A DNA stretch of 22,878 nucleotides from a virus. Below are positions 1,457 to 20,505 of this stretch, piece by piece. The translations under genes and the position numbers were made by a program. The stretch covers positions 1 through 22,878 of IMG/VR virus record IMGVR_UViG_3300037071_000701; one strand, 5' to 3'. The notes beneath the pieces were generated by a model that saw only the letters and a program-made list of their open reading frames with translations, was not told the DNA's origin and made no database searches. The stretch's first letter is position 1. The number at the start of each line of letters is the position of its first letter.

Positions 1457-1993
1457 ATGATGATTGCGCGACGACTGAGCGGCTTCGTCCTAATGGTGGC
1501 TCTGTGGCCTTGCGTCGCTGTCGCTTTCGCTGCCGATCATGGCGTAGTGAAGCTGCGTAACCCGGAGCCGTTTACCACTTGGGCCGCTAGTGCAGCCGTG
1601 GAAACGCCGCCCTTCGATGTGGAGTCCATCGACTGTCCCGGTTCAGACGGCCATCCCGGTATCTGTGTCAAGCCTGACACTCAGATCATGTATTTCCCGG
1701 CCAAGCATTTCGATCTGCTCCGGGCGAGGGTGGGGTTCTGGCATGAAGTGGGCCACGAGTTTCAGCTTGCCCACAACGCTGAGGTTCAGGCCGGGTGGCC
1801 CGCCGTGGACGCAGGGTGTAACGGCACCTTCTCGTTTAACTGCGCCGAGCGGTTTGCCGACGCTTACCGTAACTGCGCGGCGAATGACAAGGACGCAGAT
1901 GAGCGTGATCCGTGGCAGTTCAACCGAACCTATATGCCGACCGCAACCGAACACGCGATCGCCTGTTCCTTCATCAACAACGTCGCTGAATAA
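1457..1993 (+). CDS. Secreted zinc metallopeptidase-like protein (HEXXH)
   Basis: This 178-residue protein begins with a classic signal peptide: MMIARR, a hydrophobic core at about 9-24, and an AFA-A cleavage site near residues 23-26. The mature part carries HEVGH at 96-100, the HEXXH zinc-binding and catalytic motif of zincins, followed by an AERFADAYRNC segment in which Glu131 could be the third zinc ligand, as in gluzincin-type enzymes. Six cysteines remain after cleavage (60, 70, 121, 129, 140, 170), enough for three disulfides and consistent with an extracytoplasmic protein. At about 150 mature residues it is a minimal peptidase. It starts directly after the preceding stop (TAG then ATG 1457; a second ATG lies at 1460). 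Actinobacterial secreted proteins with HEXGH plus ERFAD-type segments are familiar, so host origin is plausible. Substrate and role (virion maturation, envelope entry, lysis) are unknown. Confidence 0.65.
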   Translation: MMIARRLSGFVLMVALWPCVAVAFAADHGVVKLRNPEPFTTWAASAAVETPPFDVESIDCPGSDGHPGICVKPDTQIMYFPAKHFDLLRARVGFWHEVGHEFQLAHNAEVQAGWPAVDAGCNGTFSFNCAERFADAYRNCAANDKDADERDPWQFNRTYMPTATEHAIACSFINNVAE

Positions 1994-2154: not shown

Positions 2155-2970
2155 ATGCCTGATCCCGTACAGCCCGCGGCAACACCGGACGCGCCGGAAG
2201 GCGCAGAAGTAGAGCCCGAGGGCCAGGGCGAGGCGGCTGGTCTTTACGACCTCAGTTCCGTTCCCGACGAGCTAAAACCGCACGTTGAGGAACACCTGAA
2301 GCAGATGGAGGCGAACGCCACGCGCAAGTTCCAAGAGTTCGCGGAGCAGCGCAAGGCGTGGGAGCCGTATGAGGAGCTAGGGATTAACGAGCTTGATCCT
2401 GCCGCTCTCAAGCAGCTTCTTCAGTTCGCGGAACTCGCTCAGGACGAGGATCGTTTCAAGGAGTGGTGGGAGGAGGTTGGCGAGCGCATGGAGTTGTTTG
2501 AGGACGGCTCTGGCGGCGAGCTTGACTTCTCCAACGAGAACTTCTCTGAGGACGAGCTAACTCCCGAGTCGATCAAAGCGATGATCGCTGAAGGTGTGTC
2601 CGAGGCCGTCAAGCCCATTCAGGAATCTCTTACTCAGGGCGAGCAGGAGAGACTTGAGCAGGAGGCGATGTCTGAGGTAACAGGTGTTCTCGATGGTCTG
2701 AAGGAGGAGCATGGTGCCGATCTGGACACCGACGCGATCCTTCAGCTTGCGTATGCGTATGTGGACGAGGACCCGGATAACGCAGTCCAAAAGGGGTTTG
2801 AGGACTTCCAGCGGATTGTTGGTGCAGGGCAGGCAAGCCTTCTGAAGAAGAAGGCCGATGATCCTGCCCGCGTCGAAGGCCCGGGTTCAGCGGACACCAC
2901 GCCTCGCAAGATCACGTCCTTTGAGGACGCGAAGGCGGCGGCTGCGGAACGGTTCAAGGCAACCGTTTAA
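2155..2970 (+). CDS. Capsid scaffolding protein
   Basis: This 271-residue protein is strongly acidic and almost wholly helical in character: a Pro/Glu-rich disordered N terminus (1-28), helices with Glu/Lys/Gln heptad-like patterns (about 38-200), and a C terminus that turns basic and Ala/Lys-rich (LLKKKADDPARV, then a final EDAKAAAAERFKATV). Acidic helical bodies with a basic coat-binding C-terminal end are typical of phage scaffolding proteins, and the position immediately before the major capsid gene is the canonical one. The scaffold would organise coat subunits in the procapsid and leave before or during DNA packaging. The start is ATG 2155 with AAGGA eight bases upstream; only 18 bases separate the stop from the coat start. 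Scaffolds diverge quickly, so the call rests on composition and location rather than on a motif. Confidence 0.85.
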   Translation: MPDPVQPAATPDAPEGAEVEPEGQGEAAGLYDLSSVPDELKPHVEEHLKQMEANATRKFQEFAEQRKAWEPYEELGINELDPAALKQLLQFAELAQDEDRFKEWWEEVGERMELFEDGSGGELDFSNENFSEDELTPESIKAMIAEGVSEAVKPIQESLTQGEQERLEQEAMSEVTGVLDGLKEEHGADLDTDAILQLAYAYVDEDPDNAVQKGFEDFQRIVGAGQASLLKKKADDPARVEGPGSADTTPRKITSFEDAKAAAAERFKATV

Positions 2971-2988: not shown

Positions 2989-4227
2989 ATGGCTACGCAG
3001 ACAGTCGCAACGGCGGACGCCGTACTGAAGGATTTGTACGTCGGCCCGATCGTTGAGCAACTCAACTACAAGACGTATCTCCTCGATCAGATCGAGCGAG
3101 ACTCGGACCACATCGACCACACGGGTCGGCGCGCGATTGTTCCGGTTCACACCGGGCGCAACCGCGGGCGCGGTTCACGCGGCGACGCGGGGACCCTGCC
3201 GGTCGCAGGCGCGCAGACGTGGGCCGACGCGATCATCCCGATTCGGTATCACTACTCGGGGATTGAAGTCTCCGATGGTGCGATCGAAGCGTCGCAGTCC
3301 AACGAGGGGGCGTTCGTAAACCTCCTCGACGCTGAGACAAAGGGCGTCGCGCAGGACATCCGCAAGGATGTGAACCGGCAGGTGTTCGGCACCGGGGACG
3401 GCGTTCTGGCGACCGTCGCCGCGACCGCCACCACGCAGGCCACGATCACGTTGGACTCCGTTCAATACATCGCGGTCGGCGATCCCGTCGATGTGCTGGT
3501 CACGTCCACGGGTGCTGCGGCTGCGGGCGGGGGTACGGGTAACACCGTCACCGCGCGTGCCGGTGGCACCACCAAGACGATCACGCTCGCCACGTCGGTC
3601 ACTGTCGATCTGACGCACTCGGTTTACGTCGCCGGGTCACGGGCGAACGAAATGGACGGGCTGCGTAGCATCGCTGCGACGGGCCGGACGCTCCACTCGA
3701 TCAACTCCGCCACGGCGGGGAACGAGTATTGGAACGCTCAGGTTCGCCTCGTCGGTGCGTCAGCCGCGGCACCCGCCGTCGCAGGCGAGACTCACTTTGA
3801 GTTGCTCGCCGACGACGTTGGGCTCACCGGACAGGGCGAGGTTGAGGTTTTCCTGACCTCTCGCGGCATCCGCCGCAGGCTCGCCGACACGTTCCAGTCG
3901 CAGAAGCGTTTTAACGACGCTCAGGCTGTGAACATCCACGGTGGGTACTCGGCGATCATGGTGAACGAGGTTCCCGTGGTTGCTGACGACGATGCGCCGC
4001 GCGGTTGGGCTTTCGGGCTCGACAAGAGCGCGTTCCGCTGGTTCCAGCAGGCCGCACCCGGCTGGCTGGAAAAGGATGGCAAGGTGTTCCACCTGAAGGA
4101 CGCCTCAACCGCCGGTCAGAAGATGGCCGTGTGGCAGGCATGGTTCAAGTGGTACGCGAGCTTCGGCTGCGTCGCGCCCTCGCGGGTCGGTGCGCTCAAG
4201 TTCATCACGGACGACAACCCTGCCTAA
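2989..4227 (+). CDS. Major capsid protein (HK97-type fold expected)
   Basis: This 412-residue protein follows the scaffold gene and is preceded by AGGAG at 2979-2983. Features consistent with coat proteins of many short-tailed and actinobacterial phages are an N-terminal helical stretch (about 8-40), a long extended segment with many Arg/Gly (46-66), a helix with DAETKGVAQDIRKDVNRQVFG (about 114-134, the spine-helix region), and a C-terminal segment with MVNEVPVVADDDAP (324-337) and AVWQAWFKWYASF near the end. Residues about 139-218 are Thr/Val/Gly/Ala-rich and beta-like and look like an inserted beta-barrel domain. No maturation protease gene or obvious cleavable delta domain is seen, so the protein may assemble without N-terminal cleavage. 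It is followed by a strong terminator, as is common for the most abundant late transcript. Confidence 0.9.
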   Translation: MATQTVATADAVLKDLYVGPIVEQLNYKTYLLDQIERDSDHIDHTGRRAIVPVHTGRNRGRGSRGDAGTLPVAGAQTWADAIIPIRYHYSGIEVSDGAIEASQSNEGAFVNLLDAETKGVAQDIRKDVNRQVFGTGDGVLATVAATATTQATITLDSVQYIAVGDPVDVLVTSTGAAAAGGGTGNTVTARAGGTTKTITLATSVTVDLTHSVYVAGSRANEMDGLRSIAATGRTLHSINSATAGNEYWNAQVRLVGASAAAPAVAGETHFELLADDVGLTGQGEVEVFLTSRGIRRRLADTFQSQKRFNDAQAVNIHGGYSAIMVNEVPVVADDDAPRGWAFGLDKSAFRWFQQAAPGWLEKDGKVFHLKDASTAGQKMAVWQAWFKWYASFGCVAPSRVGALKFITDDNPA

Positions 4228-4247: not shown

Positions 4248-4283
4248 GGGCCGGGGTTTGATGCACCCCGGCCCTTTCTTTGT
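4248..4283 (+). terminator. Rho-independent terminator after the major capsid gene
   Basis: The arms GGGCCGGGGT (4248-4257) and ACCCCGGCCC (4265-4274) pair perfectly around a seven-base loop (TTGATGC), and the stem can be extended by A4247-T4275. It is followed by TTTCTTTG. This is the clearest intrinsic terminator in the window. It lies 20 bases after the coat stop codon, and it makes the TTG at 4280 an unlikely start for the next gene because that codon falls in the T-rich tract. Confidence 0.9.
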
Positions 4284-4309
4284 CTGCGCGCTCGACTAGG
4301 CTTCAGCCT

Positions 4310-4828
4310 GTGACTTCGGTACTGGCTGAACCCAAGTGGCAGCACGATGGCACCAAGCGGACGGAGGGCGAGGTTCTCGACCTCCTCCACTCGCTTGTGC
4401 GCTGTCAGAAGCCCGCTGTGGTGATCGAGACAGGCACCTTCGCGGGCCACGGCACGCAGGCGATCTTCACGGCGCTTGAGCGCAACGAATACGGCCACCT
4501 GTGGACGGTGGAGAACGATCCGGTTTTGTACGAGGCGTACCCGGACGATTCTCCTCGCACGACTTACGTTGAGGGCGACTCCCTCGCGTTTGTCACCGCC
4601 GGAGAACTCCCGCCGCCTGACCTTGCTTTCGTGGATTGCGGCGAGTGGGAGCATCGGGTTCACGTTGCCCAGGAGACAAAGCGGATTCTCAACAAGGGCG
4701 GGCTGATGCTTGTCCACGACACCGAGTTTTACCCGGAGCTACTTCCTGCCATCCGCGGGCTCATCGGCGCTCCGCAGCTTCATCTTCCGACGCTTCATGG
4801 GGTCACGATCTGGCTTGAGGAACTCTGA
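4310..4828 (+). CDS. Class I SAM-dependent methyltransferase-like protein
   Basis: With a GTG start at 4310 the protein has 172 residues. It shows the Rossmann-type methyltransferase layout: motif I VIETGTFAGHGT (38-49), an acidic residue at the end of the second strand in WTVENDP (Glu68), a fourth strand LAFVDCGE (Asp109), and the late ILNKGGLMLVHDTEF segment (126-140) typical of small-molecule or sugar-directed class I enzymes of the Methyltransferase_24 type. The substrate cannot be read from sequence. A TTG at 4280 would add ten residues but lies in the terminator tract; GTG 4310 has only a weak AGG upstream. The stop overlaps the next start (TGATG at 4826-4830). A glycosyltransferase lies one gene downstream, so methylation of a glycan or of a surface component is a plausible shared pathway. 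Class assignment is good, function inferred. Confidence 0.75.
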   Translation: MTSVLAEPKWQHDGTKRTEGEVLDLLHSLVRCQKPAVVIETGTFAGHGTQAIFTALERNEYGHLWTVENDPVLYEAYPDDSPRTTYVEGDSLAFVTAGELPPPDLAFVDCGEWEHRVHVAQETKRILNKGGLMLVHDTEFYPELLPAIRGLIGAPQLHLPTLHGVTIWLEEL

Positions 4829-5274
4829 TGGAGATTCCGCCCCGCAAGGCCGACCTCGCACAGATCAGCCGTGGCCGTCACGGTGAAATGGTGCTGATCG
4901 AAAACGACGTGCAGGGCGTCGCCAACTCGCTCGCTGAGATTGACCCGCACCTTCGCTTGCGCTTCTCAGAGGCCGGGGAATACTTCGTCGTTTACTGGAA
5001 GCCCGACGATGAGCCGGAGGGCAACGGCGAGCTTGTCACCACGGCGCTCGACCTTGATATGAGGATCGTGGAACTCGTCCGCGAGCTTTACTGGAAAGCG
5101 AAGCAGCCGGGGTACTCGTTCGCCGACGAGCTTGCCGCCGAGCAGGAGCGCCGTCAAGCAGTTGAGGGCGCGAAGTTCACAGAGGAGCATGGAGAAATGT
5201 TTGAGCGCCTAGCCCACGCGATGCGTAAGGACTTGGGTTACGACAAGGGCCGGGTGTTCGTCCCCGATGTCTGA
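4828..5274 (+). CDS. Conserved-looking phage protein of unknown function
   Basis: This 148-residue protein has a short basic N terminus, a segment with hydrophobic strands (MVLIENDVQGVANSL then HLRLRFSEAGEYFVVYWKP, about 21-58), a hydrophobic helix MRIVELVRELYWKA (about 78-91), and a charged Glu/Arg-rich helical second half (100-135). There is no signal peptide or membrane segment. It is soluble and mixed alpha/beta, and it overlaps the methyltransferase stop by one base and the glycosyltransferase start by eight bases, so translation is probably coupled. The position between coat and adaptor genes would suit a small head or connector assembly protein, but it could equally belong with the two enzymes. 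I recognise no named family. Confidence 0.7.
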   Translation: MEIPPRKADLAQISRGRHGEMVLIENDVQGVANSLAEIDPHLRLRFSEAGEYFVVYWKPDDEPEGNGELVTTALDLDMRIVELVRELYWKAKQPGYSFADELAAEQERRQAVEGAKFTEEHGEMFERLAHAMRKDLGYDKGRVFVPDV

Positions 5275-5968
5275 GATTAAGCCTGACGTGGTAATCGCCG
5301 TTCCCTCTCGGGGGATGGTCCGAGCGGAGTGGGCAGCGATGCTCGCCGGGATTGCGATGCCGGTGAACACGACGCAGATGCTCAGGATTATCCCCGGGCG
5401 TTCAGTTGAGGAGGCCCGCAATGTCGCCGTCGAAGATGCGCTCCGAGTGGGCGCGAGCTACCTGTTCTTCCTCGATGATGATGTCCTGATCCCCAACGGG
5501 GCGCTGCGCCGGATGATTCACAAGATGGAGAACGAGGAGCGGTGGGACCTCTGTTCGGGCATCGTGCCGACAAAGACCGACCCGCCGGAGCCCTGCGTGT
5601 TCCGCGGCCACCGCCCGGGAGCCTTTTGGGGCTGGACGTTTAACAAGCACTTCCAGATCGACGCTTGCGGGATGGCCTGTTGCCTGATTCGTACGAGCGC
5701 CTTTGAGAAGGTGCCGGAGCCGTGGTTTGAGTGGAAGCAGGGCAGCGACGGGCAGCACTCCACAGAGGAGGGCGAGGACTTGGGTTTCTGCCGCAAGCTC
5801 CACGAGGCGGGCGGTTTCATGCTCGCGGATGGAGGCGTACTCTGTGGTCACATGGACACGGACGGCAAGGTTTACTCGCTCGACGTGGACACCGCTCCCT
5901 TCCGCCGCGGGAAGGACGACCTCAAGAAGTTCACGCTCCTTCAGCAAGCGGAACAGGCTCCCGCATGA
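5267..5968 (+). CDS. GT-A fold glycosyltransferase (family 2-like)
   Basis: The 233-residue protein opens with a strand VVIAVPSRG (8-16), the start of a Rossmann-like nucleotide-sugar domain. It has a RNVAVEDALRVGASYLFFLDDDV region in which Asp70-Asp71-Asp72 form the DXD metal-binding motif, a central acceptor region with several Cys and Trp, an EEGEDLGFC segment (167-174) that matches the catalytic-base ED position of GT-A enzymes, and a CGH motif (193-195) where a His often completes metal binding. It lacks a membrane segment and is about the length of a single catalytic domain. It would transfer a sugar from a nucleotide donor to an unknown acceptor. Lying in the virion operon next to a methyltransferase-like gene, it may modify a virion protein. 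The start (5267) overlaps the previous stop by eight bases. Confidence 0.8.
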   Translation: MSEIKPDVVIAVPSRGMVRAEWAAMLAGIAMPVNTTQMLRIIPGRSVEEARNVAVEDALRVGASYLFFLDDDVLIPNGALRRMIHKMENEERWDLCSGIVPTKTDPPEPCVFRGHRPGAFWGWTFNKHFQIDACGMACCLIRTSAFEKVPEPWFEWKQGSDGQHSTEEGEDLGFCRKLHEAGGFMLADGGVLCGHMDTDGKVYSLDVDTAPFRRGKDDLKKFTLLQQAEQAPA

Positions 5969-13221: not shown

Positions 13222-16200
13222 ATGGCCTACTTTGAGGCGCTATTCCCCTCGCAGAATCGGCGACGGCGCACAGGCGCGGGCGCGACTCAGGCGCTTCGTT
13301 CATCCCGGGGGCTCCCTGCCGCATCGCCGTCCGGCGGGTACGGTCCTGCCGCTCCGGTAACTGGCACCCCGGCGGGTCCGGCGCTTCCGTCTGCCGCGGC
13401 GAAGGCGAAGGCGGCAGCGGCGCGCAAAGAGCAGGCCAAGCTCGTCCGTGAGTACGTCACCGATCGTGAGAAGCAGCGGCTCGCCGAGCAGCACGAGGAG
13501 CGCGACGCTGAGAAGAAGGCGGCGGGCAAGGAAGGTGTCACCGAGAAGTGGGTTGATCGCAAGCTGGATGAGGCGCGCGATCGGGCTAAGGACACGTCGA
13601 AGAAGATCATGCGGTCGGCTCCGGTGCGCCGCGCCAACCGTGAGGGGCTCGTCGTCACGCGCAAGGGTGTCGATTCGGTCGCCAAGTACGTCAGCGTCCC
13701 CCGGCAGCAGAAGGTGGATACGGCGGTTGGTGAGCAGATCGTCAGTGGGATTAACCAGCAGCAGGCCGCGAGGATCGCCAAAACCGAAACGACGACCGAG
13801 CAGCTAAACCGCGAAGCGCGCGAGCAGGCTCGTTCACAGAAGGTCCGGCACCCCGGCGGCACAGTGGTCGATGCGATCCTCAGTGGCGCAGGCGCGTTCG
13901 GCGAGGCTGACCCTCAACATCCCCGGGGAAATCTCCGCTACCTCCGTCCCCCAACGCCGCAAGAGGCGATAGAGGGAGTTGCCACGACTGTTCCGCTCGC
14001 TGGCCCCGCCGCCATTGTTGCGGGTGCTGAGAGGCTTGCCGGGACGAGGGCAGGCGGCGCAATCGCTCGCGGGGCAGCCGGAGTTGGTGCTGACTTGCGT
14101 GCGGCAGGCCGCGCTACTGAGGGCTTGCGAGGCGGCTACAAGGCAGAGCGTCGGGGCGGCGCGGCGCGCTCGGTTGCTTCAGTCAAGGGTGCTACACGCG
14201 CCGTCACGCCGTTGAAGGCGCAGCAGGCCGCAGCGAAGGCAGCGGAAACGGCGGGCAGGGTGCCGTTGGCTACTCCGTTTGGCAAGGCGCTTCAGGCGAA
14301 GCCGGTTCGCACCGGACTTAAAACCACCCTCGCAGCGACGGCGCTAGATGAAACCATCGAGTCCGGCGCAGAGAACGTCAAGAACACGCTTGAGGACATC
14401 GGGGATATCGACCCCGATGATGTTAAGGAAGCGGTGGAGACTGCGGTGGACGTGGGCAAGGCCGTTCCCGGCGTGCTGCTTCACTCCGGCGAGGCGTTGC
14501 TTGGCGACGCTGATGTTCGTGAGGAATCGCTGAAGGGGATTGTTCAGGCGGGCATCGCGTCGATCGCCTTCCCGTTTGTTTTGGGCAAGGACATCGCGCA
14601 GGAGGGCGTCGGCGGTGGTATCGAAAAGGCGTTCGACCCGATCGCAGAGGACATCAGCCGCCGTTGGACCCCGGCGCTTGAGGGTGACTGGAAGGCGTTT
14701 GAGAAGCAGATGGCCGAGCCCGGTGGAGGCGGCGCGACGTTTACCTTGCTTGAGGCGTTGGGGCTTGGGCGGGCCGGGTCGGTGGGACTGTCGAAGGGGA
14801 TACGCGCCCCGCTTCGCGCAGTCGCCAAGAAGGGTGCAGGGGAGTCGATTATTCCGTCAGGAGTCTCTGAGGGAGCGGCGAGCTTGTTGAATCGCTTGGA
14901 GACTCGTCCGGGCAGGACAGTCACGAGCGGCGAGGGCGGCACCCTGCCGAAGTACGCCTCAGAGGGCATCATCGGCAGGGGCGTACAGGCTGCGATGGAT
15001 GCCGCTGCCAAGCGGGTGTCGGCTCACGCTGAAGGCAAGGTAGGTAAACCGAAGGGCCGGGGCTCTCGTGAGCTCCACCGCGAGTCGCCGGATAAAACGA
15101 GGCCGAGTGACCGCGGACAGTGGCGTGACGAGCTTCGTGCAAGCCGCGAGGAGGTAGAGAATCTGAGAGCGGCGGTGGACAACCTTCATGCCCGGGGTGC
15201 GTCCCCTACGAGGCTGCGAGCCGCCGTCCGACAGCTTGAGCGCGCCGAGCAGCGACGGGCGCGGATGCTTCGCGGCGAGCGTATTCCAGAGGGCTACGAC
15301 GCTGACCTTGCGATGGCTGAAGCGGAACGGGAACTGGCGCTCGATGAAGTGGGCGCGGCTGAGGCGTGGGGCGAGAAGGCTGGCATCCAGGCTGCTACCG
15401 AGCGCCTTGAGTTTGCCAACGCTGCGGTCCGTGAGCTTGAGAGGGGTGTGCGCGTGGACCCGGGCGCAGTCGTACCGATTCTCAAGCCCGCTCGTACCCG
15501 GCAGGCAAAGAGCCTTGCGTCCCGAATCAAGGCTGAGGAAACCCTGTCGGCTGAACGCTTCACGGAGGAGTTGCTTGGCAAGGGCCGGGATCGCTACATA
15601 AACGAGACATACGGCGATGCTGCAATACCGCATAACGCTCGCCGGGGGATCAGGCACTTCGCGCAGATTCTCAGTCAGTCTGAGTGGGATGCCGCTGTGT
15701 TTATGGCCCGGACGGGTATGCGGGACAGGGCGGGACTTCAGGGCTGGTTTGAGTCGCGCAAGCGCACTCTGCCGGAGTCCTCTCCTGAGCGCCAACTGAT
15801 CGCCGACGTTGAGAAGCTGCTTGCGAAGGGAGAGCCCGCGGCGAAGGTAATCCGCGGCGCTGAGGCGTTCGACAGGATTGGACGGGCGCTTGAGGAGCGA
15901 ACGCCTGCACTTGACACGACCGCTCGTGGGTCGGGGCGCATGACCGAAGGCGAGGCAGCGCGTCAGTCCGAGTTCGCAGAACAAACCGGGCGCGATGAAG
16001 CGTTCCGCGATGCCGAGCGGCGAGGCATTGAGATTGAGGAGGCCGAGCGCGCCCACTTGGAGGCCGAGCTTGGGATTACTCCTACCGCGAAGTCGAAGGC
16101 TCGGGTTCAGCGAGCGGTGGCGGCGCGCAAGCACGCGCAGGCAGCCGCCATTTCCGCTGATCGTCGTGCGGAACGCTTCGCCAAGCCGGAGGTCGATTAC

Positions 16201-19200
16201 GCACGCGAGCGCGTGTCGAAGATCGAGCGCAGCGCGAATCAGGCAAAGGCCGATTACGAGCGCATCCGCACCGACGAGGTAAACCGCGCCGAGAAGAAGG
16301 CGCGTACAAAGGCCGAGCGGGAGAACAAGCAGGCGGAAGTGAAGGCCGAGCGGGAGGTTGCTCGCACGAAGGCGGCGCTTACGAGGGCGCAGGAGTCGCT
16401 CAACAAACTGGACGCGGAGATTGCCGCGCGTCAGAAGCGCGGCCAGGACCCGCTCAAGCGGCAGCTTGACGCTCGTGAGGGGCGCGTGGACCGCCGCGAC
16501 GCAGCGCGTGACGCGAATCAGAAGGCGCTCCGTGAGCAGAAGAAGGTTCAGCGCGAAGCGAACGAGAAGGTCACGAAGGCCGCAGAGGAAGCTCGTCAGA
16601 AGGCGGCGGATAATCCCTCGCAGCGGGTTAAGACCGCAGAGCAGCTTGTCGGCTCAGAGGCCAAGCGCCTTGCCGCCGCTCGCAAGCTCCGTACTCGCGC
16701 GGAGCAGGCAGCCTACGCGCATCGCAACCGTGTCGTGCGGGAGGCGAAGGAGCAACTCAAAGAGGCAGAGAAGGCTGAACGCGCTCTCGCTAAGGAACAC
16801 GCGCGGACTACTGCGCGTGAGCGCGAGCTACGGGGCAAGGGCTCGCTTCACGAACGCACTTGGCGGGCTGACAGGATTGCCTACACCCGCAGCGTCGGCC
16901 CGGAGCGTCTGCGGCAGCGCCAGAAGGCTCTTGGTGGCAAGAACGCCGTAGAGCCCGGGTACATCCCCGACATCCCGCCTTTTAAGGGCGCGTTTGCCGA
17001 TCGAGCCGCCAATCGCGGCAAGAAGGGTGCGACGCCGAAGGCATCGACTGGATGGCGGGCGCGTGAGGGACTTCGCACGACGGAGAAGGAAGCTCTCATG
17101 GAGGTTTATTCACAGCAGATCAACGGCACCGCTCTGCTGCGGATAAATCGCCGGATGGCTGAGACTCTTGGGCTCTCGATCGTGGATGTGTTCGGGTCGA
17201 AGATCGAGCGGCTTATCGGACGTAACGGGATGCTGCGTCGGCCTTCGCGCAAGGAACTCGACGCGCTTGCACAGGAGATTGCCAACTTCCCCGAAGGTGA
17301 GTTCGTCGCCGTGAACGTGGGACGGTTTACGCAGGACTTCCGCAAGTATCTCTCGCAGGAACAGAGGGACGGCCATACCCCATCTGCTGCGGAACTCATG
17401 GAGAAGGTGCGGCAGCTTGAGGCCGAATCCGCAGTTCAGCGTCCGGCGAAGGACATGATTCAGGAGTGGTTCAATCAGATTGAGCAGAACCCCGCTGAGT
17501 GGCAGGACTTGGGGGAGTGGCGGTTTGTCCGCAAGAACGTCGCCGAACAGTCGGCTCCGAAGCCTCCCGGTCCTGTTGCCGGAACGCTGGCATGGTCGAA
17601 GGGGCTTGCCTCACGGATGATTCTCGGGCTCAACCCTCAGTGGCTCGGCTTTCAGGTTTACGCGAACGCGATGGTTCTTGGGCTCGGCAACCCGCGTGGG
17701 TTCCTTGCCACTGGATTTACCGGACGACTCGACCGCGCCAACCTCCCTCCTGCCGTCCGCGAGTCGTGGGAAATGACTCTTGGGCTCTCCCGGCATATGC
17801 CCGACTACGGCTATCAGGGCGCTCACGGCGCGCTCGGGTGGATGGCGCACAGGGCTGGCATGGAGCAGTCTCGGCTCTATCAGTCGGTGAAGGGGCGCTC
17901 GCTCCTGACCCCGATGTTCACACTGGACTACAAGAACAACCGTTTCTGGAAAAACATCTACCTGACGGACAAGGTTAAGCGCGAGGCGATCAAGGACATG
18001 GACGCACGCATGGCGAACATCAGCGTCATGCTCGATCGCATCAGCAGCAAGGTCACGGGCGGTAAGGTCACATCCGGCAAGCTCGATGAGTACCAGCGAC
18101 GGTTTAACGAGGTCGCCGCTGATCGTCCCCGGATGGAGCAGCTTGGCCGCGAGGTCGATCGCTGGATGGGTGACTACCTGCGGTTTACTTCAAACGAGCG
18201 CGCGTGGCTTGTGAACAACGTCATGTTCTACGGCTTCCTGCGGCACTCGCTGACGATTGCCCTGAGCGCCCTTCCGCGCTCCCCGATCAAGGCGAACATC
18301 CTCGCCAAGATGGGGCAGGTTGCGCTTGAGGATCAGAAGGAAATGCTGCGTCGGATGATGCGGCAGGCGATCCGCGATCAGGTTCAGCTTTGGTATCCGC
18401 GGGGCGAGACAGGCCGCAAGGAGTTCCGTTCAGAGGTCGATCACTACTACGACTCGATGGAGGCGGATGGTTTGTTTGACGACATCCCCCTCCCGATGCT
18501 CGGCGACTTCTACTTTGAAGGCCCGATCGACGTGCCGATTCTCGGTGAGATTGTCGGCGAGGGCATCCATCGGATTCAGACATCACGCGCGGCTGCGCTC
18601 GGCAACGTCCTCTTGGAGTCACGCTCGCCGTGGCAGTTGCTCAATGTGATTAACCCATTCGTCGTGACAACGCTGGAAGCAGCGATGGGTTACGACTTCT
18701 ACACCGGGCAGCAGATCAGGACTGACCCGAAGGGTGGCATCGACCCGGGATTTCGCACGCTTGGGGCGCAGGATGCGGCGCGGCACATGATGAGCGACAT
18801 CGCCAACCTTGTGCCGCCGATCCGCGGTTTGCTTACCGGCCTCTCCGACTACCCCTCGATGGAGCGCACAGATGGATTCATCCCCGGCCTCTTTCCTGAA
18901 GAACCAATGCAGTGGAAAGAGGACTGGCGCAAGAAGGTTCAAAGCGCCAACGTCCGGCGGTTCCAGAATATTCAGGGCTCGCCGCTCGATGAAGTGCTGA
19001 AGGTGACGGCTCCGTTTATCGCGCAGAAGCGTGATCCGATGTCGATTCTCGGTCCGCTGGTGAGCGCCGAGACACCGGAGGGCGAAAAAACGCCGCTTGA
19101 GGAGCTTGGCTCCAACCTTCGCAACTTCTCAAAGGACCGCTATGGGAAGGCGCACTCGTGGTCCCCTGACGACCGCTTTGGTGACGACACCGGATTGTTC

Positions 19201-20505
19201 GCTAAGGATGAGGGTCGCTTCGATGAGTCCTCGCCGAACTACCGGGACGGCGGCGGGGCGTTCGGGCAGCTTCAGTCGAAGTTGCCACCCGATCAGGCGA
19301 AGTCGAAGCAGAAGAAGATGGATGAGGCTCGGAAGAACCGTAAGGTCGTCGTGCCGGATTACGTTCCCGCCGAGTACCGAGACAATCTTGAGAAGGCGGA
19401 ACGCGATTACGGTGTTCCGGCCACTCTCCTCGCCGCACAGATTCAGCAGGAGTCCGGGTTTGACAAGGACGCGGGCTCGCGCGCTGGCGCACAGGGCATC
19501 AGTCAGTTCATGCCGGACACGGCTGCGGGTTTGGGTGTCGATCCGTGGGACCCCGATTCCGCAATCGACGGACAGGCCCGGATGATGAAGGGACTCCTCG
19601 ATCAGTTCGGCGGCAACGTGGAGCTTGCGCTGGCGGGCTACAACGCCGGGGCTGGTGCGGTGGAGGCTGCGGGTAATCAGATTCCCGACTTCCCTGAGAC
19701 ACAAAACTACGTCGCGTCGATCAAGGCCGCTGTCGGTGGCTCATTCGGTCGGACGGCTCCCGGGGCGGGTGCGACGCCGAAGAAGCACAAGGGCGCATAC
19801 GCCGGGTCGAAGGCGATCGTCCGCGAGTTGATCGGCAAGAAGGCCGCTCAGAACTACGACTGGAAGGACAAGGAGGATCGTGGTGATCCCGGCGGCACCC
19901 TCCATGACATCGGCACCGAGAACGGCTACGCGGCTGATCTGTCGGAGGACACGTCCGAGAAGATGGTGGACATCATCGCCAAGAAGCTCGGGCTCGATCC
20001 TGACGAAGTGAACTACGGCACGACCGGGCTTGAGTCGGGGATTACCTACAAGGGGTACGACATCGAGTTTCTGCCCTACACACACGGCTCCGGCCCGCAC
20101 ATCCACATCGGCGCTCAGTGGACGGGAGGCTCGCTCCCGGCAGGCACAACGCTCGGAGGCGGTATGTCGGCTACGAGTACCTCGGGCGGGGTAGCTGCCC
20201 CAACGGGCTCAACGTCCACGAGCGCGGCCCCTGCAACGCCTCAGACCACCCCTCGTCAGGGGCGCGGCGCTGCTAGGCGTGGTTCGCGCGTGAAGGCGCT
20301 TGAAGCGATCAAGGACCGGCGCGAGCCCGGGGGGACTAACGCCTTGCTCGGAGTACCATCAGTAAGGACAGACGAGCGCATCGACCCGATTGCGCTGGCA
20401 TCTGAACCGACTGGACAAGCGTTGGACCCGATCGCGGTAGGAGCCGAATACGCCTCACTGACACGCTCTGGCCTCCCACGGCTAAAGGTACGTCGGCGGC
20501 GCTAG
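13222..20505 (+). CDS. Giant internal virion protein with lytic transglycosylase and putative zinc peptidase domain
   Basis: At 2427 residues this is by far the largest product. A basic N terminus (NRRRRTG) leads into charged helices and hydrophobic segments near 254-275 and 439-455. Residues about 990-1210 are an almost uninterrupted Glu/Lys/Arg/Ala coiled coil. Residues about 1440-1870 include LGLNPQWLGFQVYANAMVLG and NNVMFYGFLRHSLTIALSALP, patterns I associate with huge phage ejection proteins. A soluble lytic transglycosylase (GH23-like) domain spans about 2054-2173, with catalytic Glu2077 in QQESGFD, GIS at 2092-2094, and AGYNAGAG at 2138-2145. A further domain (about 2215-2305) has GYAAD (2235-2239) and HIH (2293-2295), resembling zinc D,D-peptidase/M15-type motifs. 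The tail is low complexity and ends in RRRR. It probably is ejected to open a wall channel. Confidence 0.8.
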   Translation: MAYFEALFPSQNRRRRTGAGATQALRSSRGLPAASPSGGYGPAAPVTGTPAGPALPSAAAKAKAAAARKEQAKLVREYVTDREKQRLAEQHEERDAEKKAAGKEGVTEKWVDRKLDEARDRAKDTSKKIMRSAPVRRANREGLVVTRKGVDSVAKYVSVPRQQKVDTAVGEQIVSGINQQQAARIAKTETTTEQLNREAREQARSQKVRHPGGTVVDAILSGAGAFGEADPQHPRGNLRYLRPPTPQEAIEGVATTVPLAGPAAIVAGAERLAGTRAGGAIARGAAGVGADLRAAGRATEGLRGGYKAERRGGAARSVASVKGATRAVTPLKAQQAAAKAAETAGRVPLATPFGKALQAKPVRTGLKTTLAATALDETIESGAENVKNTLEDIGDIDPDDVKEAVETAVDVGKAVPGVLLHSGEALLGDADVREESLKGIVQAGIASIAFPFVLGKDIAQEGVGGGIEKAFDPIAEDISRRWTPALEGDWKAFEKQMAEPGGGGATFTLLEALGLGRAGSVGLSKGIRAPLRAVAKKGAGESIIPSGVSEGAASLLNRLETRPGRTVTSGEGGTLPKYASEGIIGRGVQAAMDAAAKRVSAHAEGKVGKPKGRGSRELHRESPDKTRPSDRGQWRDELRASREEVENLRAAVDNLHARGASPTRLRAAVRQLERAEQRRARMLRGERIPEGYDADLAMAEAERELALDEVGAAEAWGEKAGIQAATERLEFANAAVRELERGVRVDPGAVVPILKPARTRQAKSLASRIKAEETLSAERFTEELLGKGRDRYINETYGDAAIPHNARRGIRHFAQILSQSEWDAAVFMARTGMRDRAGLQGWFESRKRTLPESSPERQLIADVEKLLAKGEPAAKVIRGAEAFDRIGRALEERTPALDTTARGSGRMTEGEAARQSEFAEQTGRDEAFRDAERRGIEIEEAERAHLEAELGITPTAKSKARVQRAVAARKHAQAAAISADRRAERFAKPEVDYARERVSKIERSANQAKADYERIRTDEVNRAEKKARTKAERENKQAEVKAEREVARTKAALTRAQESLNKLDAEIAARQKRGQDPLKRQLDAREGRVDRRDAARDANQKALREQKKVQREANEKVTKAAEEARQKAADNPSQRVKTAEQLVGSEAKRLAAARKLRTRAEQAAYAHRNRVVREAKEQLKEAEKAERALAKEHARTTARERELRGKGSLHERTWRADRIAYTRSVGPERLRQRQKALGGKNAVEPGYIPDIPPFKGAFADRAANRGKKGATPKASTGWRAREGLRTTEKEALMEVYSQQINGTALLRINRRMAETLGLSIVDVFGSKIERLIGRNGMLRRPSRKELDALAQEIANFPEGEFVAVNVGRFTQDFRKYLSQEQRDGHTPSAAELMEKVRQLEAESAVQRPAKDMIQEWFNQIEQNPAEWQDLGEWRFVRKNVAEQSAPKPPGPVAGTLAWSKGLASRMILGLNPQWLGFQVYANAMVLGLGNPRGFLATGFTGRLDRANLPPAVRESWEMTLGLSRHMPDYGYQGAHGALGWMAHRAGMEQSRLYQSVKGRSLLTPMFTLDYKNNRFWKNIYLTDKVKREAIKDMDARMANISVMLDRISSKVTGGKVTSGKLDEYQRRFNEVAADRPRMEQLGREVDRWMGDYLRFTSNERAWLVNNVMFYGFLRHSLTIALSALPRSPIKANILAKMGQVALEDQKEMLRRMMRQAIRDQVQLWYPRGETGRKEFRSEVDHYYDSMEADGLFDDIPLPMLGDFYFEGPIDVPILGEIVGEGIHRIQTSRAAALGNVLLESRSPWQLLNVINPFVVTTLEAAMGYDFYTGQQIRTDPKGGIDPGFRTLGAQDAARHMMSDIANLVPPIRGLLTGLSDYPSMERTDGFIPGLFPEEPMQWKEDWRKKVQSANVRRFQNIQGSPLDEVLKVTAPFIAQKRDPMSILGPLVSAETPEGEKTPLEELGSNLRNFSKDRYGKAHSWSPDDRFGDDTGLFAKDEGRFDESSPNYRDGGGAFGQLQSKLPPDQAKSKQKKMDEARKNRKVVVPDYVPAEYRDNLEKAERDYGVPATLLAAQIQQESGFDKDAGSRAGAQGISQFMPDTAAGLGVDPWDPDSAIDGQARMMKGLLDQFGGNVELALAGYNAGAGAVEAAGNQIPDFPETQNYVASIKAAVGGSFGRTAPGAGATPKKHKGAYAGSKAIVRELIGKKAAQNYDWKDKEDRGDPGGTLHDIGTENGYAADLSEDTSEKMVDIIAKKLGLDPDEVNYGTTGLESGITYKGYDIEFLPYTHGSGPHIHIGAQWTGGSLPAGTTLGGGMSATSTSGGVAAPTGSTSTSAAPATPQTTPRQGRGAARRGSRVKALEAIKDRREPGGTNALLGVPSVRTDERIDPIALASEPTGQALDPIAVGAEYASLTRSGLPRLKVRRRR

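What the first reader, a model, noticed from the sequence alone, without database searches (positions are those of the whole stretch)
1457..1993. A secreted HEXXH metallopeptidase inside the head gene block
A protein with a clear signal peptide, HEVGH (96-100), a possible third ligand Glu131 and six mature cysteines lies between a decoration-like gene and the scaffold. Late structural operons usually encode cytoplasmic proteins; a signal peptide means this enzyme is exported while virions assemble. It might cleave host surface proteins to aid release, block reinfection or act on the envelope, or it may be a host-derived moron. Seen: motifs and signal peptide. Inferred: function.
Basis: partly seen in the sequence, partly recalled or inferred. 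Interest (0 to 1): 0.62.

Follow-up and report, generated by a model that had tools for sequence, protein, structure and literature searches.

The report
Exported zinc protease of soil phages
A phage that probably infects soil bacteria of the class Thermoleophilia carries, among the genes for its head, an accessory gene for a small zinc protease with a secretion signal; it belongs to an undescribed protease family shared by about a dozen other phage sequences and by the bacteria themselves, and it probably acts on the outside of the infected cell.

Summary
Window 1457-1993 (+) encodes 178 aa with a Sec-type signal peptide, HEVGH at 96-100, Glu131 and six mature cysteines. It is not a chance motif: a profile built without it scores it 60.6 bits, against at most 20.0 for 1000 shuffles that keep the motif. 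It is a divergent member of a small exported gluzincin-type family with no Pfam or NCBIfam entry and no informative PHROG entry. I found 12 further phage loci and chromosomal copies in Solirubrobacter (class Thermoleophilia). H96, E97, G99, H100, E131, F133 and A134 are invariant in the 20-row family alignment, so Glu131, not His106, is the likely third zinc ligand. A family model (pLDDT 90) most resembles M34-type (PPEP-1-like) proteases, below significance. Prophages with this phage's capsid gene lie in Thermoleophilia genomes, so host and protease lineage coincide. In sister phages one antisense slot holds a gluzincin, a metzincin-like protein or a third exported protein, with similar signal peptides. 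The gene is an accessory (moron-like) export gene. Best guess at function: late envelope proteolysis aiding release, as reported for the Listeria metzincin Mtz; lysogenic conversion is the main rival. No substrate or activity is shown.

The parts
1457..1993 (+). Exported zincin gene, 178 aa
   Evidence: ORF; profile match without itself 60.6 bits, E 1.4e-17; full-length BLASTP to a Solirubrobacter chromosomal copy, 25%, E 6e-8
1457..1531 (+). Sec-type signal peptide (residues 1-25; cleavage after A23 or A25)
   Evidence: rule-based scan: only 1 of 114 window ORFs passes; family members have equivalent N-termini
1742..1756 (+). HEVGH, zinc-binding motif, residues 96-100
   Evidence: H, E, G, H invariant in all 20 rows of the family alignment
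1847..1849 (+). Glu131, proposed third zinc ligand, in E-x-F-A-D-x-Y
   Evidence: invariant in all 20 rows, with F133 and A134
1634..1666 (+). Cys60 and Cys70, inferred disulfide
   Evidence: pair kept in most family members; both absent together in L080 and L081
1817..1843 (+). Cys121 and Cys129, window-specific pair in a loop where the family's conserved Arg segment is lost
   Evidence: alignment; pairing is inference
1874..1966 (+). Cys140 and Cys170, inferred conserved disulfide joining the Glu-bearing helix to the C-terminal helix
   Evidence: near-invariant; both absent together in L108
365..1456 (+). Upstream 363-aa ORF whose stop abuts the zincin start; extra, together with ORF 100-372, in the portal-scaffold interval
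   Evidence: absent from that interval in relatives; weak PHROG tail/sheath hits
2155..2970 (+). Scaffold-position protein downstream
   Evidence: homologous to the gene before the capsid gene in relatives
2989..4227 (+). Major capsid protein, used to find relatives and host class
   Evidence: phrog_14242 5.6e-66; relatives; prophages

Best explanation
It is an accessory (moron-like) phage gene for a small Sec-exported zinc endopeptidase of gluzincin type: His96, His100 and Glu131 bind zinc, Glu97 is the general base, and disulfides stabilise the fold outside the membrane. The fold is most like a minimal M34 (PPEP/ATLF-like) catalytic domain. The gene belongs to a family of the phage's probable host lineage (Thermoleophilia) and has come to lie in different slots of different phage genomes. 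In this phage it lies in the head operon without a recognised promoter of its own, so it is probably made late, exported, and cleaves host envelope or cell-surface proteins during virion assembly, which would help lysis and release (as reported for the Listeria metzincin Mtz) or modify the surface. Shown by sequence: family, motif conservation, signal-peptide pattern, sporadic presence, host class of the phage group. Inferred: zinc binding, activity, disulfides, late expression, substrate and benefit.
For: Profile without the window protein 60.6 bits against a maximum of 20.0 in motif-keeping shuffles. Twelve phage homologues found by motif and profile scans, with signal-peptide-like N-termini. 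Zinc residues invariant in 20 rows; paired loss of cysteines in L108 and in L080/L081. Chromosomal copies in Solirubrobacter. Prophages with this capsid type in Thermoleophilia, one inside a 5.1-Mb contig. Sporadic: 3 of 20 records of the capsid group, one of them the metzincin-like relative. In sister phages L004 and L077 (capsids 91% identical) the same antisense slot holds a metzincin-like or a gluzincin-type exported protein, and L005 has a third exported protein there with a similar signal peptide. Family model pLDDT 90, pTM 0.88; nearest folds M34-type. Precedent: exported phage-origin metzincin raises phage lysis and virion release (PMC8235301).
Against: The window copy is the most divergent member (longest branch, 2.87): it has Gln for the conserved Asp103 and lacks the conserved Arg segment, so altered specificity or lost activity is possible. 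Its own model is only moderate (pLDDT 69.9). No fold match reaches significance. Most other copies lie antisense to late genes or elsewhere, which fits expression in the lysogen as well as late expression. The Listeria pair needs a lipoprotein partner; no adjacent exported protein is seen here. No promoter or transcript evidence.
Confidence: 0.5

Rival explanations
1. Lysogenic-conversion cargo: the protease serves the lysogen (nutrient proteolysis, competition, surface change) rather than virion release; its place in the head operon of this phage is incidental.
For: Integrases in near-complete relatives G303, G304, G320, G310 and G318; antisense, moron-like placement in L070, L072, L077 and L079 and in an integrase-ended element of S. 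phytolaccae; Solirubrobacter keeps chromosomal copies of its own.
Against: In the window the gene is sense, directly abuts the upstream stop, and no separate promoter was recognised, so it should be silent in a lysogen unless an unrecognised promoter exists.
Confidence: 0.3
2. Exclusion role: the exported protease removes surface receptors or appendages and blocks reinfection by the same or other phages.
For: Export of a protease during infection or lysogeny is compatible; different zincin types occupy the same slot in sister phages.
Against: No receptor or substrate is known; nothing in the sequence favours this over lysis.
Confidence: 0.12
3. Degenerate or non-proteolytic member: the zincin fold is kept but substrate-site changes have made it inactive.
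For: Longest branch of the tree; loss of conserved Asp103 and the Arg segment.
Against: All three ligands, the general base, the open frame and the cysteines are intact; a new cysteine pair suggests maintained folding.
Confidence: 0.08

Closest known systems
Chromosomal exported zincins of Solirubrobacter (undescribed; L092-L095, L099, L106, L107)
   Same: signal peptide, W..WA and V.T segment, CPG...C pair, HExGH, ExFAEAYxxC, C-terminal Cys-x-Leu-Ile; 25% identity over the full length
   Different: bacterial copies have long Ser/Thr/Pro-rich tails and keep Asp at +3 after the HEXXH and the Arg segment; the window copy lacks these
M34-type gluzincins (PPEP-1/Zmp1, ATLF-like domains)
   Same: HExxHxxD and downstream E-x-F-A-E pattern; top fold hits
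   Different: similarity below significance; no Tyr 7 residues before the Glu; cysteine pairs not compared with M34
Listeria Mtz-Tim pair of phage origin (PMC8235301)
   Same: Sec-exported zinc protease associated with phages; reported to enhance phage lysis and virion release
   Different: Mtz is a metzincin (HEXXHXXGXXH and Met-turn) with a TIMP-like lipoprotein partner; here gluzincin type, no partner seen, different slot
Metzincin-like exported protein of sister phage L004 (10585-11145 -)
   Same: same phage group, Sec signal peptide, exported zincin
   Different: HEVGHLLGYSH motif; antisense slot downstream of the capsid gene

Membership tests
New exported gluzincin-type family (this report) | significant profile match over the domain | tested here: met
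   60.6 bits, E 1.4e-17 with a profile built without the window protein
New exported gluzincin-type family (this report) | HExGH and downstream ExFA[DE] residues | tested here: met
   intact; invariant in 20 rows
New exported gluzincin-type family (this report) | signal peptide | tested here: met
   rule-based, not a trained predictor
New exported gluzincin-type family (this report) | common but not universal feature: Asp at +3 after HExGH and Arg segment | tested here: not met
   Gln103 and a deletion in the window copy; makes it a divergent member
Peptidase M34 / PPEP (ATLF-like) | HEXXH with a Glu third ligand | tested here: met
   by alignment
Peptidase M34 / PPEP (ATLF-like) | significant sequence match | tested here: not met
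   PPEP E 0.05-0.3; no Pfam hit
Peptidase M34 / PPEP (ATLF-like) | significant fold match | tested here: inconclusive
   most of the top 20 hits M34-type, best E 0.027, probability up to 0.85
Peptidase M34 / PPEP (ATLF-like) | catalytic Tyr seven residues before the Glu ligand | tested here: not met
   no conserved Tyr there
Metzincins (M10/M12, Mtz) | HEXXHXXGXXH | tested here: not met
   HEVGHEFQLAH has Gln for Gly; His106 is not conserved
Metzincins (M10/M12, Mtz) | curated family score | tested here: not met
   Reprolysin_4 11.7 bits against a cut-off of 22
Mtz-Tim system | adjacent exported lipoprotein partner | tested here: not met
   no other window ORF passes the signal-peptide rule; lipobox motifs were not scanned separately
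Phage moron | accessory, sporadically present | tested here: met
   window gene absent from the same interval in relatives; 3 of 20 records have any match
Phage moron | own promoter and terminator | tested here: inconclusive
   none recognised near the gene, but a sigma-70 consensus is a poor guide for this lineage
Prohead maturation protease | cytoplasmic protease of the head operon | tested here: not met
   signal peptide and cysteines; no PHROG match

The most novel reading that the evidence does not exclude
These temperate soil phages keep dedicated export positions in which exported zinc proteases of different catalytic type replace one another under similar signal peptides, because proteolysis outside the membrane is a selected step of the infection cycle; the window phage has moved that function into its head operon to time it with assembly.
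Probability: 0.2. Interest if true: 0.72.

Novelty: new variant of a known kind. Interest (0 to 1): 0.5.

Why it matters
It defines a small exported zinc-protease family, unlisted in Pfam, NCBIfam or (informatively) PHROGs, that is shared by soil phages and by their probable hosts, the little-studied Thermoleophilia. If active during infection it would extend the one experimentally studied case found here, the Listeria metzincin Mtz, to another catalytic type and another bacterial class, and make testable whether phages use exported proteases to prepare the envelope for lysis. The head-operon copy gives a clean prediction of late expression.

Tried and rejected
Direct tblastn against phage and plasmid records: two weak phage matches at E 8 over the N-terminal third, no plasmid match. 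Pfam, NCBIfam, PHROGs and PDB with the single sequence: nothing significant. Metzincin reading with His106 as third ligand: rejected, His106 and the Gly are not conserved while Glu131 is invariant. Prohead protease: rejected because of the signal peptide and cysteines. RNA element in the 1994-2154 gap: no structure beyond shuffles (z 0.89). Promoter scan: nothing at the gene. First genome scan with A2 found no relative; a signature pattern did, of which the three Acrocarpospora hits look like unrelated cytoplasmic proteins and were left out. Tree: position of the window protein unresolved, so single or repeated transfer from hosts cannot be told. Recent foreign origin by base composition: not supported (GC 0.592 against 0.629 for the window; scaffold gene 0.593). 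L001 agrees with the window over about 4.43 kb, so it is no independent evidence.

Full report
OBSERVATION. The ORF at 1457-1993 (+) encodes 178 aa as described: signal-peptide-like N-terminus, HEVGH at 96-100, Glu131, and mature cysteines C60, C70, C121, C129, C140 and C170. By a simple rule (positive n-region, hydrophobic core, A-x-A site) it is the only one of 114 window ORFs with a signal peptide; 11 of 5000 shuffles of the protein pass. A trained predictor was not available.

SINGLE-SEQUENCE SEARCHES FAIL. Pfam gives a sub-threshold Reprolysin_4 hit (11.7 bits, cut-off 22); PHROGs, NCBIfam and PDB give nothing meaningful; phage and plasmid records have no relative. In the viral collection the only close match is L001, which agrees with the window over about 4.43 kb apart from its ends and so is the same virus population.

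A FAMILY EXISTS. Degenerate DNA patterns for HExGH followed by ExFA[DE]xY (read) returned, among unrelated long phage proteins, six small proteins of one kind, exported where the N-terminus is complete; a profile from these (A2) brought the phage set to twelve further loci, L070-L081. They share features that were not part of the search: W...A.V.TP, CPG...C, a Trp before the Glu, Cys140, and a C-terminal Cys followed by Leu-Ile. To guard against circularity, a profile was built without the window protein: it scores the window protein 60.6 bits (E 1.4e-17), no other window frame comes close, and 1000 shuffles that keep HEVGH and the ExFA residues reach 20.0 bits at most. A separate BLASTP finds L077 at E 1.9e-6.

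BACTERIAL COPIES. A genome-wide pattern scan found close family in Solirubrobacter species, class Thermoleophilia, with the same domain plus a long Ser/Thr/Pro-rich tail. BLASTP of the window protein with one is full-length, 25% identity, E 6e-8. In S. soli the gene lies among ordinary chromosomal genes (L129). In S. phytolaccae a second copy lies antisense near an integrase, with a replication-initiator-like and a head-protein-like gene, i.e. in a prophage-like or satellite-like element of about 12 kb (L130). In 299 genomes of the class, 21 match at 1e-5 but only five at 1e-15 or better; the weaker ones that I read are more distant zincin-like proteins, several of them exported.

ACTIVE SITE. 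In the 20-row alignment (A8) H, E, G, H of the motif and E131, F133, A134 are invariant. His106, which would give the window a metzincin-like HEVGHEFQLAH, is not conserved, and the metzincin Gly is Gln. So Glu131 is the likely third ligand. Cys140 and Cys170 are lost together in L108, and Cys60 and Cys70 together in L080 and L081, which supports two disulfides; Cys121-Cys129 is specific to the window. The window copy has Gln for the conserved Asp103 and lacks the following Arg segment, and has the longest branch of the tree (2.87).

STRUCTURE. AlphaFold2 for the window protein with 13 sequences is moderate (pLDDT 69.9, pTM 0.68); the helices that carry HEVGH, Glu131 and the C-terminus are among its confident parts. 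The Solirubrobacter domain with 20 sequences is confident (pLDDT 90, pTM 0.88). Foldseek against the PDB has no hit at E below 0.001, but the top hits are nearly all M34-type gluzincins: lethal-factor-type catalytic domains, E from 0.027, probability up to 0.85, and PPEP-1. Profile searches of PDB sequences give the same families at E 0.05-0.3. The Tyr seven residues before the Glu in PPEP-1 is not conserved here. I therefore call the fold M34-like and do not file the family under M34. The tools give no coordinates, so residue distances in the window protein were not measured.

PHAGE AND HOST. The capsid gene (phrog_14242) has 18 relatives in viral contigs besides L001. The nearest cultured phages are Arthrobacter phages of the genus Jasminevirus and Microbacterium phage Shocker, at about 28-30% capsid identity. 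The capsid profile finds three of 399 Thermoleophilia genomes, one match inside a 5.1-Mb contig with syntenic neighbours, hence a prophage. Near-complete relatives carry integrases. So the group is at least partly temperate and infects Thermoleophilia; that the window phage does too is inference.

POSITION. L001 extends the window upstream: portal end, ORFs of 88, 112, 122 and 105 aa, then ORFs of 90 and 363 aa, the zincin, scaffold, capsid. Relatives have portal, small genes, scaffold, capsid, without the 363-aa and zincin genes. The zincin start abuts the stop of the 363-aa ORF (TAGATG), no promoter was recognised, and the gap after it has no RNA structure beyond chance. Co-transcription with the head genes is therefore likely, not shown. 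Base composition resembles that of the scaffold gene.

A SLOT IN SISTER PHAGES. L004 and L077 have 91% identical capsids. Between the same two late genes, antisense, L077 has a member of this family and L004 a metzincin-like protein with HEVGHLLGYSH; their signal peptides are alike, and similarity outside them is weak. L005 has in that place a third exported protein with a similar signal peptide and no zincin motif. L004 and L077 also share a short one-helix membrane ORF before the zincin. This is replacement of exported proteins in one slot, in two cases by zinc proteases of different type, and suggests that export of a protease is useful to these phages. Of the capsid relatives searched only L077 carries the same family; three of 20 records have any match.

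MECHANISM. Best guess: late production, Sec export, zinc-dependent cleavage of host envelope or surface proteins, easing lysis. The closest experimental precedent is the Listeria pair Mtz and Tim (PMC8235301): a Sec-exported metzincin of phage origin, acting with a lipoprotein it cleaves, makes cells more sensitive to phage lysins and raises virion release about five-fold, and related genes occur in listerial prophages downstream of holin and lysin. The present protein differs in catalytic type, genomic place and lack of a visible partner. Lysogenic conversion is the main rival, given integrases and antisense placement elsewhere. Activity, substrate and timing are untested.

VERDICT. Real gene, real family, exported by all available signs; function inferred. 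It is a new variant of a known kind, phage-encoded exported zinc proteases. Interest 0.5.

Noticed in passing
L004:10585-11145(-), L077:9992-10582(+), L005:10553-10888(-): The same antisense slot in related phages holds a metzincin-like protein, a gluzincin-type protein or an unrelated exported protein, all with similar signal peptides; in L004 and L077 a short one-helix membrane ORF precedes it.
   Followed up: partly
L081:253-1458(+): A long open frame seems to hold two zincin domains in tandem: an N-terminal one with a signal peptide and HEASH, and a C-terminal one of this family with HELGH.
   Followed up: no
L130:1315-12898: Element of about 12 kb in Solirubrobacter phytolaccae with replication-initiator-like, head-protein-like and integrase genes and an antisense zincin; size suggests a satellite or a remnant prophage.
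   Followed up: partly
window 4280-4828 (+) and 5267-5968 (+): A methyltransferase-like gene (Methyltransf_24, 3.5e-11) and a weakly glycosyltransferase-like gene lie in the structural block; of the relatives compared, only L077 has a homologue of the second.
   Followed up: no
window 13222-20505 (+): 2427-aa protein with a lytic transglycosylase-like domain near its C-terminal end (residues about 2041-2233).
   Followed up: no
L093, L099, L106, L107: Chromosomal Solirubrobacter homologues carry long Ser/Thr/Pro-rich C-terminal tails after the protease domain.
   Followed up: partly
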